Shown in pieces: positions 23,023-26,616 of a stretch of 64,000 bases of DNA. The DNA comes from Trichocoleus sp. (GTDB lineage Bacteria; Cyanobacteriota; Cyanobacteriia; Elainellales; Elainellaceae): positions 1 through 64,000 of the forward strand of contig DATNQD010000017.1 in the NCBI GenBank assembly GCA_036702865.1, given 5' to 3'. The translations under genes and the position numbers were made by a program. The number at the start of each line of letters is the position of its first letter. Within the stretch, counting starts at the first letter, position 1. The notes below the pieces were generated by a model. That model was not told the DNA's origin and did no database searches. It worked only from the letters and a program-made list of their open reading frames with translations.

Positions 23023-23168
23023 ATTTCGCACAAGTTAGCAAAGCAGGATCACTTGGTGCTCTACCATTGAGCTACAGGAGCAAAACGAAGCTCCAGGCGG
23101 GAATCGAACCCACAACCTCCTGGTTAACAGCCGGATGTGTGTAGGCTTTACAGGTCAGGGTGCGAAAT
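23023..23168 (-). other. outer stem enclosing the inside-out tRNA-Asn
   Basis: ATTTCGCAC at 23023-23031 is the exact complement of GTGCGAAAT at 23160-23168. Inside it, a second block (GCTTT against AAAGC on the transcript) can pair. The paired ends would bring the break point of the permuted tRNA together in the RNA. Confidence 0.6.
23057..23135 (-). tRNA. tRNA-Asn(GUU) with 3' half before 5' half (circularly permuted layout)
   Basis: On the minus strand the 3' half comes first (23135-23090: anticodon arm with GUU, short variable loop, T arm GTGGG-TTCGATT-CCCGC, acceptor CTGGAGC). An 8-base linker follows, then the 5' half (23081-23057: acceptor GCTCCTG, D arm GCTCAATGGTAGAGC, base 26). Joined at positions 26/27, the halves make a full-length tRNA whose acceptor strands pair except for one T-T. 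Neither half has its missing part on the other side. It may instead be two truncated copies of a tandem duplicate. Confidence 0.6.
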
Positions 23169-23457
23169 AGAGTATTTATCCGTAAACCGCTTCAGGACGA
23201 ATGATGAGATCACCACTTGGACGGCGATTCCCCTTTTGGGATGCTACGCGATCGATCATATAAGCAGAGAGCCGATTAATATTGACATCTAAATGTCTGG
23301 AAACTTGTTCTTTGACCGCTACATCACTCCTACCTGTAGTAATTCCGAGTTGGGTCTCTGTAATGTCGATCGCGCTGCTTTGCAGATACCCGCAAGGGGT
23401 CGTCTTTCAAATCGAATATGACCATTAGTTGTTACCCCTCGCATAATTGATGAACAA
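23169..23457 (-). other. remnant of a coding region inside the array
   Basis: A minus-strand frame ending near 23178 reads [35 protein letters not shown] and [18 protein letters not shown]. It has no start codon; an upstream ATG at about 23424 opens [18 protein letters not shown] in another frame. It looks like a frameshifted small gene. The family is not recognised. Confidence 0.35.
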
Positions 23458-23540
23458 CGGAAGGAGGAGTCGAACTTCAATAGCGTGACACTACCCTCTG
23501 ATCTTCCAAATCAGTTGGCGTCCACACAGCCGCACCTTCT
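23458..23540 (-). tRNA. tRNA-Ser(GGA), degenerate
   Basis: Anticodon loop TTGGAAG on a perfect 5-bp stem and a long variable arm. The T stem has two mismatches and the acceptor stem pairs over only about 5 bp, so it may be non-functional. Confidence 0.55.
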
Positions 23541-23544
23541 ATAG

Positions 23545-23628
23545 CGGAAACTGGAGGAATCGAACCTCTACAGCATGAACTGTACGCCTGTTTTCGAGGC
23601 AGGTTGTCACCCATCGACCGCAGCTTCC
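23545..23628 (-). tRNA. tRNA-Ser(CGA)
   Basis: Anticodon loop CTCGAAA, acceptor GGAAGCT/AGTTTCC, long variable arm with TACAG/CTGTA stem, T loop TTCGATT. Confidence 0.8.
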
Positions 23629-23634
23629 ATAAGG

Positions 23635-23711
23635 GGTGTCTAGCGGGACTTGAACCCTGCTAATGACTTGCTTCACAGGCAAGCGTCTCGACCACTTCGA
23701 CTTTAGACACC
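23635..23711 (-). tRNA. tRNA-His(GUG)
   Basis: Anticodon loop CTGTGAA, acceptor GTGTCTA/TAGACAC with the encoded G-1 typical of tRNA-His facing C73. Confidence 0.85.
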
Positions 23712-23719
23712 ACAAGGTG

Positions 23720-23791
23720 GATTCTGGTCGGATTTGAACCGACATCTTTCTGCTTGCAAGGCAGATGCTTTTCCAATTAAGCTACAGACCC
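23720..23791 (-). tRNA. tRNA-Ala(UGC)
   Basis: Anticodon loop CTTGCAA on a perfect TCTGC/GCAGA stem; T arm GTCGG-TTCAAAT-CCGAC. The acceptor stem has weak pairs near its end. Confidence 0.8.
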
Positions 23792-23825
23792 ATGATTGCC
23801 AAGCGGCAATAACTTAAACAAGTGG

Positions 23826-23899
23826 CAGGAGTGGTAGGACTCAAACCTACACCAGCCGATTTAGAAGATCGGTGCTCTGTTCGATTGAGCTACACTCCC
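23826..23899 (-). tRNA. tRNA-Arg(UCU)
   Basis: Anticodon loop CTTCTAA, acceptor GGGAGTG/CACTCCT, T loop TTTGAGT. A CCA is encoded after the discriminator base. Confidence 0.85.
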
Positions 23900-23907
23900 A
23901 TTGTTGG

Positions 23908-23979
23908 TAGTCCTGATAGGATTCGAACCTACAGCCCTCTGTTTGTAAGACAGATGCTCCACCCTTGAGCTACAGGACT
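23908..23979 (-). tRNA. tRNA-Val(UAC)
   Basis: Anticodon loop CTTACAA on TCTGT/ACAGA, acceptor AGTCCTG/CAGGACT, encoded ACCA. Confidence 0.88.
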
Positions 23980-23984
23980 ATGAG

Positions 23985-24056
23985 AGCGAACGGCGAGATT
24001 CGAACTCGCATCTGGAGATTGGCATACTCCGGTGTTAGCCCTTACACCACATTCGC
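23985..24056 (-). tRNA. tRNA-Gly(GCC)
   Basis: Anticodon loop ATGCCAA, acceptor GCGAATG/CGTTCGC, T arm GCGAG-TTCGAAT-CTCGC. No encoded CCA. Confidence 0.83.
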
Positions 24057-24071
24057 AAGATTTAAGATTGG

Positions 24072-24143
24072 AGCGAAAGACGAGACTCGAACTCGTGTCT
24101 CCTGGTTGGAAGCCAGGGATGCTTGCCGCTGCACCACATTCGC
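24072..24143 (-). tRNA. tRNA-Gly(UCC)
   Basis: Anticodon loop CTTCCAA on CCTGG/CCAGG, acceptor GCGAATG/CTTTCGC, encoded TCCA. Close relative of the preceding Gly gene. Confidence 0.88.
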
Positions 24144-24150
24144 ATTCTGG

Positions 24151-24222
24151 GGCTGGTGACAGGAGTTGAACCTGCAACCGACTGTTTACAAGACAGTTGC
24201 TCTACCGTTGAGCCACACCAGC
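24151..24222 (-). tRNA. tRNA-Thr(UGU)
   Basis: Anticodon loop CTTGTAA on ACTGT/ACAGT, acceptor GCTGGTG/CACCAGC, encoded CCA. Confidence 0.88.
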
Positions 24223-24228
24223 ATTTGG

Positions 24229-24302
24229 TGACGGAGGTGAGAATTGCACTCACTGATTTGAAGGGTATGAACCTTCCGAGCCACTGTTGCTCCATCTCCG
24301 CA
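24229..24302 (-). tRNA. tRNA with CAU anticodon (Met, or Ile if modified)
   Basis: Anticodon loop TTCATAC on GAAGG/CCTTC, T arm GTGAG-TGCAATT-CTCAC, encoded ACCA. No initiator features such as the three G-C pairs. The first acceptor pair is a mismatch. Confidence 0.75.
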
Positions 24303-25642: not shown

Positions 25643-25723
25643 CGGAGAGCAGTGGACTCGAACCACAATTGTTCATCCATCTGTTTAGCAAACAGCGCCA
25701 ATTGCCTAATTGGTTTACTCTCC
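25643..25723 (-). tRNA. tRNA-Ser(GCU)
   Basis: Anticodon loop TTGCTAA on CTGT/ACAG, acceptor GGAGAGT/GCTCTCC, variable arm about 15 bases. Confidence 0.83.
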
Positions 25724-25749
25724 ATGATTTTGTTAATCAAACCGATTGG

Positions 25750-25831
25750 TAGGTCGGGCAGGAGTCGCACCTGCAACGCAAAAAGCGGCTGTTTTACAGA
25801 CAGTTGCCCACGCTGATAGGCGAGCCGACCT
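25750..25831 (-). tRNA. tRNA-Tyr(GUA)
   Basis: Anticodon loop CTGTAAA on ACTGT/ACAGC, acceptor AGGTCGG/CCGACCT, long variable arm GCxxxxGC, encoded ACCA. Confidence 0.86.
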
Positions 25832-25869
25832 ATGTTTGTTTTGGTTGCTCATGTTTGAGCAAGTTTGGC

Positions 25870-25941
25870 AGTGCCGACGGGAGTTGAACCCGCAAACATC
25901 GACTTGAAAGATCGACGGCTTTACCAGTTTGCCTACGGCAC
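25870..25941 (-). tRNA. tRNA-Glu(UUC)
   Basis: Anticodon loop CTTTCAA on TCGAT/GTCGA, acceptor GTGCCGT/TCGGCAC, T arm GCGGG-TTCAACT-CCCGT. Confidence 0.83.
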
Positions 25942-25948
25942 CATTAAT

Positions 25949-26066
25949 GTCGTGCAAGTTGAAAAAGCTGTTGTTCACACACAGGATTTGAACCTGCATA
26001 GACTGTTTTGCAAACAGTTGCCCTACCATTAGGCGAGTATGTAAGCTTTTTCGATTCGGGCACGAC
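25949..26066 (-). other. extended hairpin enclosing tRNA-Cys
   Basis: GTCGTGC (25949-25955) is the complement of GCACGAC (26060-26066), and GAAAAAGCT (25961-25969) of AGCTTTTTC (26044-26052). The two perfect helices are separated by a 5 x 7 internal loop and continue into the acceptor stem of the tRNA. Confidence 0.75.
25973..26044 (-). tRNA. tRNA-Cys(GCA), imperfect acceptor stem
   Basis: Anticodon loop TTGCAAA on a perfect ACTGT/ACAGT stem, T arm GCAGG-TTCAAAT-CCTGT. The acceptor strands TTACATA and GTGTGAA pair only with a bulged base. Embedded in a long flanking hairpin. Confidence 0.72.
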
Positions 26067-26068
26067 AA

Positions 26069-26139
26069 CGCACAGACGAGGATTTGAACCTCGAACAACG
26101 GTTTTGGAGACCGTGATGTTGCCGTTACACCATCTGTGC
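26069..26139 (-). tRNA. tRNA-Trp(CCA)
   Basis: Anticodon loop CTCCAAA on ACGGT/ACCGT, acceptor GCACAGA/TCTGTGC, T arm CGAGG-TTCAAAT-CCTCG. Confidence 0.87.
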
Positions 26140-26145
26140 ATGGGT

Positions 26146-26216
26146 CGCAGTGGTGGGAGTCGAACCCACATATCCTCGGTTATGAGCCGAGTACCTTATC
26201 CGTTAGGTGACACTGC
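26146..26216 (-). tRNA. tRNA with CAU anticodon (Met, or Ile if modified)
   Basis: Anticodon loop CTCATAA on CTCGG/CCGAG, acceptor GCAGTGT/CACTGC, T arm GTGGG-TTCGACT-CCCAC. Its body differs from the other CAU gene, so one of the two may be tRNA-Ile(CAU). Confidence 0.78.
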
Positions 26217-26225
26217 AATAATTGG

Positions 26226-26298
26226 ACTCCAGGGTGGGGATTGAACCCACGAATAATCGGTTTTGCAGACCAACGCCTTCCCATTTGGCAACCTGGAG
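26226..26298 (-). tRNA. tRNA-Cys(GCA), second copy
   Basis: Anticodon loop CTGCAAA, acceptor CTCCAGG/CCTGGAG, T arm GTGGG-TTCAATC-CCCAC, encoded CCA. Body unrelated to the Cys gene at 25973. Confidence 0.83.
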
Positions 26299-26301
26299 AT
26301 G

Positions 26302-26385
26302 TGGTGGAGATGTGGGGAATTGAACCCCAGTCCTGCAACCGTCCGTTTGTTGGTTTCGGAGCAGGCGATCGCCAATCGCATCCCC
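26302..26385 (-). ncRNA. tRNA-like element with tmRNA-type 3' end and encoded CCA
   Basis: Acceptor GGGGATG/CATCTCC, T arm TGGGG-TTCAATT-CCCCA and encoded ACCA are perfect, and the 3' end reads like a tmRNA 3' terminus. The 5' part holds the palindrome GGCGATCGCC instead of a normal D arm. The position of the anticodon arm has a TCCG/CGGA stem with an 11-base loop and no U33. No amino acid can be assigned. Confidence 0.6.
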
Positions 26386-26390
26386 ATGAG

Positions 26391-26464
26391 CGAGGATGAC
26401 AGGGTATGAACCTGTGACCACTTGCTTCGGAAACAAGTACTCTGTCCATCTGAGCTGCATCCTG
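26391..26464 (-). tRNA. tRNA-Arg(CCG)
   Basis: Anticodon loop TTCCGAA on CTTGT/GCAAG, T arm ACAGG-TTCATAC-CCTGT. The outermost acceptor pair is a mismatch. Confidence 0.8.
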
Positions 26465-26465
26465 G

Positions 26466-26539
26466 GAGCCTCGACGGGAGTTGCACCCGCTGCTTTCTGG
26501 CTGAGAACCAGAACAACTTATCTATTCGTCCACGAGGCT
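26466..26539 (-). tRNA. tRNA-Glu(CUC)
   Basis: Anticodon loop TTCTCAG on TCTGG/CCAGA, acceptor AGCCTCG/CGAGGCT, T loop TGCAACT, encoded CCA. CUC is an unusual Glu anticodon in cyanobacteria. Confidence 0.8.
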
Positions 26540-26542
26540 ATA

Positions 26543-26616
26543 CGGGGATGATGGGATTTGAACCCACGATCTTTCGCTCGACAGGCGACTGCTTTGAGCC
26601 ACTAAGCTACACCCCC
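26543..26616 (-). tRNA. tRNA-Asp(GUC), first gene of the array
   Basis: Anticodon loop CTGTCGA on GTCGC/GCGAA, acceptor GGGGGTG/CATCCCC, T arm GTGGG-TTCAAAT-CCCAT. Confidence 0.84.

What the first reader, a model, noticed from the sequence alone, without database searches (positions are those of the whole stretch)
23057..26616. A tRNA array of 34 genes that covers all 20 amino acids, on one strand
Reading the minus strand, 34 complete tRNA genes with intact stems can be identified over 3.6 kb, with anticodons for every amino acid (Ser x4, Leu x5, Arg x3, Gln x2, Glu x2, Gly x2, Cys x2, CAU x2 and the rest single), plus a permuted Asn, a tRNA-like RNA and a minihelix. Long tRNA arrays are known from some cyanobacterial plasmids and mobile elements, including Anabaena (established knowledge). 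The completeness here, with unusual members, is noteworthy. Whether the tRNAs are made and charged is unknown.
Basis: partly seen in the sequence, partly recalled or inferred. Interest (0 to 1): 0.82.

Follow-up and report, generated by a model that had tools for sequence, protein, structure and literature searches.

The report
Stress tRNA array with Y RNAs
The long tRNA gene array is real, and it is half of a gene island whose odd members are tRNA look-alike RNAs of the kind that Ro60 proteins hold; the island appears built to make spare or decoy translation RNAs when protein synthesis is under attack.

Summary
The array is real: 31 tRNAs by ARAGORN, three more by Rfam or comparison, all on the minus strand. 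It is a cyanobacterial "long array" like the Anabaena trn operon, with the same gene order on many plasmids, and it is unrelated in sequence to the host's own tRNAs. An operator like that of the Anabaena translational-stress repressor TrcR lies upstream, and HNH plus alr0857-family genes precede it.

The odd members change the picture. The "permuted Asn" and one of the two "Cys tRNAs" sit inside the same extended stem. They are Y-type RNAs (YrlA architecture, strong covariation), not tRNAs. The "tRNA-like RNA" is a tmRNA tRNA domain without its mRNA part. The "minihelix" is a conserved 41-nt hairpin.

In 69 of 80 loci such elements lie beside an undescribed Ro60-fold protein, always on its strand. 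In this genome that protein sits on another contig, C68, behind a decayed sister array with the same operator. Related elements carry 23S rRNA mimics (sarcin-ricin loop, GTPase centre, helix 69). Phage contigs carry versions too.

Best reading: a TrcR-controlled Ro60-family RNP island supplying replacement and decoy translation RNAs. Architecture is shown; function is inferred.

The parts
28315..28332 (.). second TrcR-like operator, ATACTAC...GTAGTAT palindrome, upstream of the HNH gene
   Evidence: pattern match on both strands with up to 2 substitutions
27453..27998 (-). HNH endonuclease gene (IscB-type HNH), first gene of the operon
   Evidence: Pfam HNH_5 6.9e-17; NCBIfam IscB partial 5.4e-17; homologue in 13 of 14 plasmid array loci and 11 of 80 Ro60-like loci
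27013..27426 (-). alr0857-family protein gene
   Evidence: NF045647 2.7e-38; alr0856 (HNH) and alr0857 are in the Anabaena TrcR regulon (PMC10272220 table passage)
26891..26920 (-). TrcR-like operator over the array promoter (TTGACA just upstream)
   Evidence: TTGTAGTATNTTGTATTATA occurs at exactly 2 places in the genome at <=2 mismatches, here and upstream of the C68 sister array; backward control 0
26669..26887 (-). leader ORF, 72 aa, between operator and array
   Evidence: homologue at the same place in Kovacikia and in 4 of 80 Ro60-like loci
23458..26617 (-). array of 33 plain tRNA genes, first Asp-GUC, last Ser-GGA
   Evidence: Ser-GGA read by eye
26302..26385 (-). tmRNA tRNA-like domain without mRNA-like domain
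   Evidence: RF00023 45.4 bits (cut-off 47), E 9.1e-16; motif conserved in 33 of 80 Ro60-like loci
25948..26067 (-). Y-type RNA, type A: tRNA-like body 25973-26043 (anticodon GCA) inside a two-part closing stem
   Evidence: covariation 96.0% of cells paired, 32 sequences
25081..25121 (-). conserved 41-nt hairpin (the 'minihelix')
   Evidence: same length in 7 of the 25 sequences scanned, in two sequence variants
23179..23385 (-). broken copy of the 65-aa gene 'small66'
   Evidence: tblastn 70% identity, 1.5e-26; homologue in 69 of 80 Ro60-like loci; frame broken by direct reading
23024..23167 (-). Y-type RNA, type B: circularly permuted tRNA domain (the 'permuted Asn')
   Evidence: RF02553 YrlA 37 bits over model 24-84; covariation 95.7% of cells paired, 27 sequences
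22169..22897 (-). gene 'hyp242', 242 aa, unknown family
   Evidence: no Pfam match; homologue in 46 of 80 Ro60-like loci
22126..22163 (-). 5' half of a further Y-type frame, cut off; the Ro60-like gene that follows elsewhere is missing here
   Evidence: 89% match to the start of the 25948-26067 element; sequence

Best explanation
The array is the tRNA-supplying half of a stress-controlled RNA island built around a Ro60-family protein. Under normal growth a TrcR-type repressor sits on the operator over the promoter. When translation is inhibited, the repressor is lost and one long transcript is made. It gives supernumerary tRNAs for all 20 amino acids, a tmRNA tRNA-like domain, and Y-type RNAs whose closing stem is the likely docking site for a Ro60-like ring protein and whose outer domain mimics a tRNA in normal or circularly permuted order. 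In this genome the ancestral island is split: C17 (the window) has the HNH gene, the full array, a type A and a type B Y RNA and hyp242; C68 has a decayed array, types A, C, D and E, the Ro60-like protein, KptA and NADAR. Sister elements mimic 23S rRNA sites where translation factors bind. Most likely function: to restore and shield the translation machinery during RNA damage, by replacement of lost tRNAs and by decoy or sensor RNAs held on the Ro60-like protein. Shown: sequence, synteny, structure by covariation, operator motif, predicted protein fold. Inferred: TrcR control in this species, binding, decoy or repair role.
For: Operator: two exact sites genome-wide, both upstream of the two arrays; in Anabaena the motif is footprinted and TrcR represses the trn array, HNH genes, alr0857 and rtcB (PMC10272220). 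Y elements: 193 in 69 of 80 Ro60-like loci, 193 of 193 on the protein's strand, against 1 and 1 in reversed and complement controls. Covariation. Protein fold: Foldseek ranks 1-13 are all Ro60/Rsr/TROVE, best E 2e-13; Z 23.1 over 436 residues, next non-Ro match 15.9 on the vWA domain only. Island genes shared with the window: hyp242 46 of 80, small66 69 of 80. Arrays of 9 or more tRNAs beside the Ro60-like gene in 8 of 80 loci, and in Kovacikia L060. Array tRNAs resemble other arrays (mean identity 0.93), not host tRNAs (0.60; 0 of 26 closer to host). rRNA mimics: 39 of 213 elements match 23S, shuffles 8 of 1065. A viral contig has 16 tRNAs, two type A elements and the Ro60-like gene.
Against: No Ro60-like gene lies in the window, and Pfam TROVE finds nothing in this genome; the protein is on another contig, so pairing with the C17 RNAs is inferred. 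small66 is broken and the last Y frame is cut off, so the C17 copy is partly decaying. YrlA scores stay below Rfam's cut-off (37 of 69 bits). KptA is in only 8, NADAR in 4 and the CCA-transferase-like gene in 2 of 80 loci, so the repair link is a minority feature. 11 of 80 loci show no element with the strict descriptor. Elements were selected for outer-stem pairing, so helix 1 counts are biased (the other helices are not). The repressor gene was not looked for in this genome. No expression, charging or binding data.
Confidence: 0.68

Rival explanations
1. Plain long tRNA array: a horizontally moved, stress-induced spare tRNA set as in Anabaena. The Y-type RNAs and tmRNA domain are passengers with no joint role.
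For: Conserved order with plasmid arrays; TrcR-like operator; 18 of 35 listed features encode CCA. Anabaena work reports induction and a survival benefit (introduction of PMC10272220).
Against: Y elements, hyp242 and small66 are conserved and tied to the Ro60-like gene; the frame covaries.
Confidence: 0.2
2. Decaying mobile element: truncated and rearranged tRNA genes left by duplication. The permuted Asn would be the 3' half of one copy followed by the 5' half of the next.
For: Sister array on C68 is decayed; small66 broken; one Y frame truncated.
Against: The permuted element aligns with 26 others; 22 of 31 pairs show two-sided changes that keep pairing; the hairpin and tmRNA domain recur in other genomes.
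Confidence: 0.07
3. Counter-defence cargo: the island came from phages, which use tRNAs and mimics to overcome host RNA-cutting defences, and was kept by cyanobacteria.
For: Ro60-like gene in phage LR756511 and in two viral contigs, one with 16 tRNAs and type A elements.
Against: Most relatives found are cyanobacterial and many carry TrcR-like operators; only 3 viral relatives were found in the two searches.
Confidence: 0.12

Closest known systems
Long tRNA array / trn operon of Anabaena sp. PCC 7120 with repressor TrcR (PMC10272220)
   Same: Long array of supernumerary tRNAs, TGTAGTAT-type operator over the promoter, HNH and alr0857-type genes in the same regulon
   Different: 33 plain tRNA genes rather than 26, all 20 amino acids, and here read together with Y-type RNAs and the Ro60-like island
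Bacterial Y RNA YrlA (Rfam RF02553; structure 6CU1 as cited in PMC11472068)
   Same: Two-part closing stem with internal loop, CUA after the inner stem, AACUUG-like 3' loop (consensus shown), circularly permuted tRNA domain with closed acceptor arm
   Different: Score under Rfam's cut-off; keeps an anticodon arm; a second type carries the tRNA body in normal order; embedded in a tRNA array; partner protein is diverged
Ro60/Rsr/TROVE proteins (PDB 1YVR, 2NVO, 9NFA)
   Same: Whole-length fold, helical part plus vWA domain; MIDAS-type residues invariant in 30 sequences
   Different: About 16% identity; no Pfam TROVE match; found on C68, not in the window
rsr-yrlBA-rtcBA RNA repair operon of Salmonella (PMC7790460)
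   Same: Ro60 protein and tRNA-mimic Y RNAs expressed on tRNA damage
   Different: rtcB lies elsewhere in this genome (C74); array and rRNA mimics are extra; regulator differs
tmRNA (RF00023)
   Same: tRNA-like domain with CCA end
   Different: No mRNA-like domain or tag; the full tmRNA is on C73

Membership tests
Long cyanobacterial tRNA array (trn type) | many clustered supernumerary tRNA genes on one strand | tested here: met
Long cyanobacterial tRNA array (trn type) | gene order shared with plasmid arrays | tested here: met
Long cyanobacterial tRNA array (trn type) | TrcR-type operator at the promoter | tested here: met
   motif only; binding not tested
Long cyanobacterial tRNA array (trn type) | silent in normal growth, induced by translational stress | not testable with these tools
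   needs RNA data
Bacterial Y RNA (YrlA type) | circularly permuted tRNA domain | tested here: met
   alignment to model 24-84
Bacterial Y RNA (YrlA type) | two-part closing stem with conserved loops | tested here: met
   (consensus shown)
Bacterial Y RNA (YrlA type) | score over Rfam's curated cut-off | tested here: not met
   37 of 69 bits; so called Y-type, not filed as an Rfam YrlA member
Bacterial Y RNA (YrlA type) | encoded near a Ro60 gene | tested here: inconclusive
   true of 69 of 80 relatives and of C68, not within the window
Bacterial Y RNA (YrlA type) | bound by Ro60 | not testable with these tools
   needs pull-down
Ro60 family (C68 protein) | helical ring plus vWA fold | tested here: met
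   on relative L085
Ro60 family (C68 protein) | Pfam TROVE match | tested here: not met
   hence 'Ro60-fold' or 'Ro60-like'
tmRNA | mRNA-like domain with tag ORF | tested here: not met
   84-nt match skips the middle of the 374-position model
Permuted tRNA gene (algal/archaeal kind) | bulge-helix-bulge splice site and processing | not tested
   the Y-type reading accounts for the permutation

The most novel reading that the evidence does not exclude
Cyanobacteria, and some phages, carry an inducible kit of look-alikes of the translation machinery: tRNAs for every amino acid, tRNA and tmRNA mimics in normal and permuted order, and (at sister loci) mimics of the 23S sarcin-ricin loop, GTPase centre and helix 69, the mimics docked through one shared stem on a Ro60-fold protein, acting as decoys or damage sensors against toxins that attack ribosomes and tRNAs.
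Probability: 0.4. Interest if true: 0.93.

Novelty: new variant of a known kind. Interest (0 to 1): 0.8.

Why it matters
Long tRNA arrays have been a puzzle of purpose. If the array is one arm of a Ro60-family RNP island, the purpose becomes testable: the partner protein, the operator, the RNAs and the predicted triggers are all named. Bacterial Ro60-bound RNAs are known as tRNA mimics; a set that also copies the factor-binding sites of 23S rRNA would be a new use of molecular mimicry, and would suggest how cells shield translation from RNA-damaging attack.

Tried and rejected
Chance or artefact: rejected. Host-derived duplication of housekeeping tRNAs: rejected, 0 of 26 array tRNAs are closer to the host gene with the same anticodon. 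Pseudogene remnants for the odd members: disfavoured by covariation. Plain Cys tRNA at 25973-26043: rejected, since it is framed in the same way in all 10 plasmid loci printed and its anticodon varies widely (74 type A elements, 9 of them without a call). Type D as a 16S mimic: considered, not supported; no 16S match at E 0.01. hyp242 fold: model poor (pLDDT 65) and Foldseek found nothing. Ro60-like protein by sequence against PDB: nothing relevant. A promoter regex was too strict (4 of 80) and is not used. Ala identity: I read the acceptor stem by eye as lacking G3:U70 and then as having it with one bulged base; left open. Literature: 10 searches showed no paper joining tRNA arrays, Y RNAs and rRNA mimics; the library holds only open-licence papers, and five wanted papers were not held, so this is weak evidence of newness. 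What I know of the Anabaena array beyond PMC10272220 is recalled, not read, and is not used. Names such as sarcin-ricin loop, GTPase centre and helix 69 for the 23S positions are recalled labels on the coordinates. Rows dropped: one search left out L077 and L078, which repeat the window; one search used the 80 loci only (127 relatives were reported there, 80 kept).
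Full report
What is there. On the minus strand, 23458-26617, ARAGORN finds 31 tRNA genes and Rfam 25 above its cut-off. A permissive Rfam scan adds others, including Tyr just under the cut-off; His is found by Rfam only and Ser-GGA by reading. The window is the start of contig C17 (184,945 bases) of a 5.93-Mb assembly in 90 contigs that has a separate dispersed host set (43 tRNAs in the 41 stretches used).

The array is not a copy of the host's tRNAs. Each of the 26 array tRNAs with a host counterpart of the same anticodon is closer to another array: mean identity 0.60 to host, 0.93 to six Leptolyngbya-type arrays (31 of 31 had a counterpart), 0.83 to Nostocales plasmid arrays (28 of 31). 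All five Leu-anticodon genes are 75-78 nt, against 82-85 nt for the five host Leu tRNAs, and the same short form holds in 31 of 31 and 23 of 23 Leu-anticodon genes of the other arrays. 18 of 35 listed array features encode CCA.

Relatives. The array matches plasmids of Kovacikia (71% of the 4-kb query at 76.5% identity) and of Nostoc, Tolypothrix and Calothrix, with the same order from Asp-GUC, Glu-CUC, Arg-CCG, Cys, CAU, Trp onward, some members being missing in some arrays. An HNH gene precedes nearly all of them (annotations; tblastn 13 of 14).

Control region. The pattern TTGTAGTATNTTGTATTATA occurs at two places in the whole genome with up to two mismatches, both exact: C17:26901-26920, over the array promoter, and C68:12372-12391, over a decayed sister array; the backward control gives none. 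In Anabaena, TrcR protects a TGTAGTAT site over the -10 box of the trn operon, represses it, and its level falls under chloramphenicol; its regulon includes HNH genes alr0856 and all8564, alr0857 and rtcB (PMC10272220: sections 4, 7, 9, 10, 13 and passages). The window has an HNH gene and an alr0857-family gene (NF045647, 2.7e-38) before the array, and a second operator-like site at 28315-28332. The repressor gene itself was not sought here.

The odd members. The position-7 "Cys" and the "permuted Asn" share one frame: an 8-bp outer stem, a loop beginning CC, an inner stem, ACAYAC on the 5' side and AACUU on the 3' side. Inside the first is a tRNA body in normal order, inside the second a circularly permuted tRNA whose acceptor arm is closed by a loop. 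Rfam's YrlA model matches the permuted domain (37 bits, cut-off 69; E 3.9e-6 for 1351 bases) and matches a Kovacikia element over the whole model (32.7 bits). PMC11472068 (passages) states that the solved bacterial Y RNA gives circularly permuted superpositions on tRNAs. On 27 type B sequences 95.7% of cells pair and 22 of 31 pairs show two-sided changes, against 38-47% paired when slid. On 32 type A sequences: 96.0%, 23 of 34 pairs, slid 33-53%. Elements were chosen for outer-stem pairing, so helix 1 is biased, the others are not. The tRNA-like RNA at 26302-26385 is a tmRNA tRNA domain without its mRNA part; its core motif recurs, with up to 4 edits, in 33 of 80 Ro60-like loci. The full tmRNA is on C73. 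The minihelix is a 41-nt hairpin in 7 of 25 sequences scanned, in two variants.

The protein. On C68 (L035) the sister array and its Y elements lie directly upstream of a 503-residue protein with only weak vWA matches in Pfam and no TROVE match. A scan of genome contigs found 127 relatives, 80 kept. The model of relative L085 (pLDDT 87.5) has as Foldseek ranks 1-13 only Ro60, Rsr and TROVE entries, Z 23.1, rmsd 3.9 over 436 residues for 9nfa_A, 20.9 for Deinococcus Rsr; the next entry, 15.9, covers the vWA domain alone. MIDAS-type residues are invariant in 30 sequences. A profile finds it in 32 of 386 genomes of the phylum searched, 3 of them weak.

Association. In the 80 loci (1.45 Mb) the strict descriptor finds 193 elements in 69 loci, all 193 on the strand of the Ro60-like gene; reversed and complement sequence give 1 each. 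Arrays of nine or more tRNAs lie in 8 of the 80. Homologues of window genes: small66 in 69, hyp242 in 46, HNH in 11, alr0857 family in 4, leader in 4 of 80. The window therefore holds the first half of the island (HNH, alr0857 family, operator, leader, array with type A, broken small66, type B, hyp242, a truncated frame) and C68 the second half (types A, C, D, Ro60-like, type E, KptA, NADAR, two further genes). KptA and NADAR are in 8 and 4 of 80 loci only. Several non-cyanobacterial relatives are single metagenome contigs and may be misbinned.

Beyond the window. Of 213 elements, 39 match E. coli 23S rRNA at E 0.01: 35 type E (GTPase-centre region 1055-1114 in 34 of them; a sarcin-ricin 12-mer was used to name the type), three with helix 69 (1909-1941), one short match; shuffles 8 of 1065. 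Type E is in 33 of 80 loci plus C68 and Kovacikia, and 25 of 35 have an operator-like match within 70 nt upstream, against 14 of 3000 random windows. The only 23S-like match in the whole assembly is the C68 mimic, no rRNA operon being found in it. The window itself has no rRNA match. A 595-kb phage record and two viral contigs carry the protein; one has 16 tRNAs and two type A elements upstream, and downstream proteins that by eye resemble two of the island's neighbours; three elements lie upstream of the gene in the phage.

How it most likely works. Shown: the parts, their conservation and their shared operator motif. Inferred: under translational stress the repressor is lost, the array transcript is processed to spare tRNAs, and Y-type RNAs dock on the Ro60-like protein and present tRNA, tmRNA and rRNA surfaces as decoys, sensors or guides to repair enzymes. 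Salmonella gives a precedent for Ro60 and YrlA induced with RNA repair on tRNA damage, and its authors suggest YrlA might compete for an anticodon nuclease (PMC7790460, passages).

Judgement. The array alone is a new member of a known kind. Its tie to a Ro60-fold island with Y-type RNAs is a new variant. I found no paper describing this tie, with the limits given under Tried and rejected.

Noticed in passing
L035 6698-6901 (C68); L060 14133-14335; 33 of 80 Ro60-like loci: About 205-nt framed RNA that fuses mimics of the 23S sarcin-ricin loop and GTPase centre, often under its own operator-like site.
   Followed up: partly
L128 4836, L136 9109, L137 8133: Framed RNAs with 23S helix 69 sequence.
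   Followed up: partly
L035 10964-11105, L084 7948-8093: Type D framed RNA of about 145 nt just upstream of the Ro60-like gene; what it mimics, if anything, is unknown.
   Followed up: no
type A elements, 74 cases: Anticodons vary widely, with CUA (amber) in 8; the acceptor end is buried in the frame, so decoding is doubtful.
   Followed up: partly
window 24303-25072, five Leu-anticodon genes: All lack the long variable arm of normal Leu tRNAs, as in the other arrays compared.
   Followed up: partly
L168 16677-16872: RNase P RNA-like match (49 bits, under the cut-off) near the viral Ro60-like island; could be another mimic.
   Followed up: no
L085, L086, L090, L093, L094, L106, L107, L114, L144: Short repeat inserts (GGTACCCT...GGGAAGGCAAAGCCTAC) sit in the T arm of the tmRNA-like domain.
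   Followed up: no
window 29542-32763: NACHT-LRR protein with NNH1 domain beside the HNH gene, a possible defence gene.
   Followed up: no
L035 5649-6707: KptA and NADAR genes downstream of the Ro60-like gene on C68, enzymes linked to RNA 2'-phosphate and ADP-ribose removal.
   Followed up: partly
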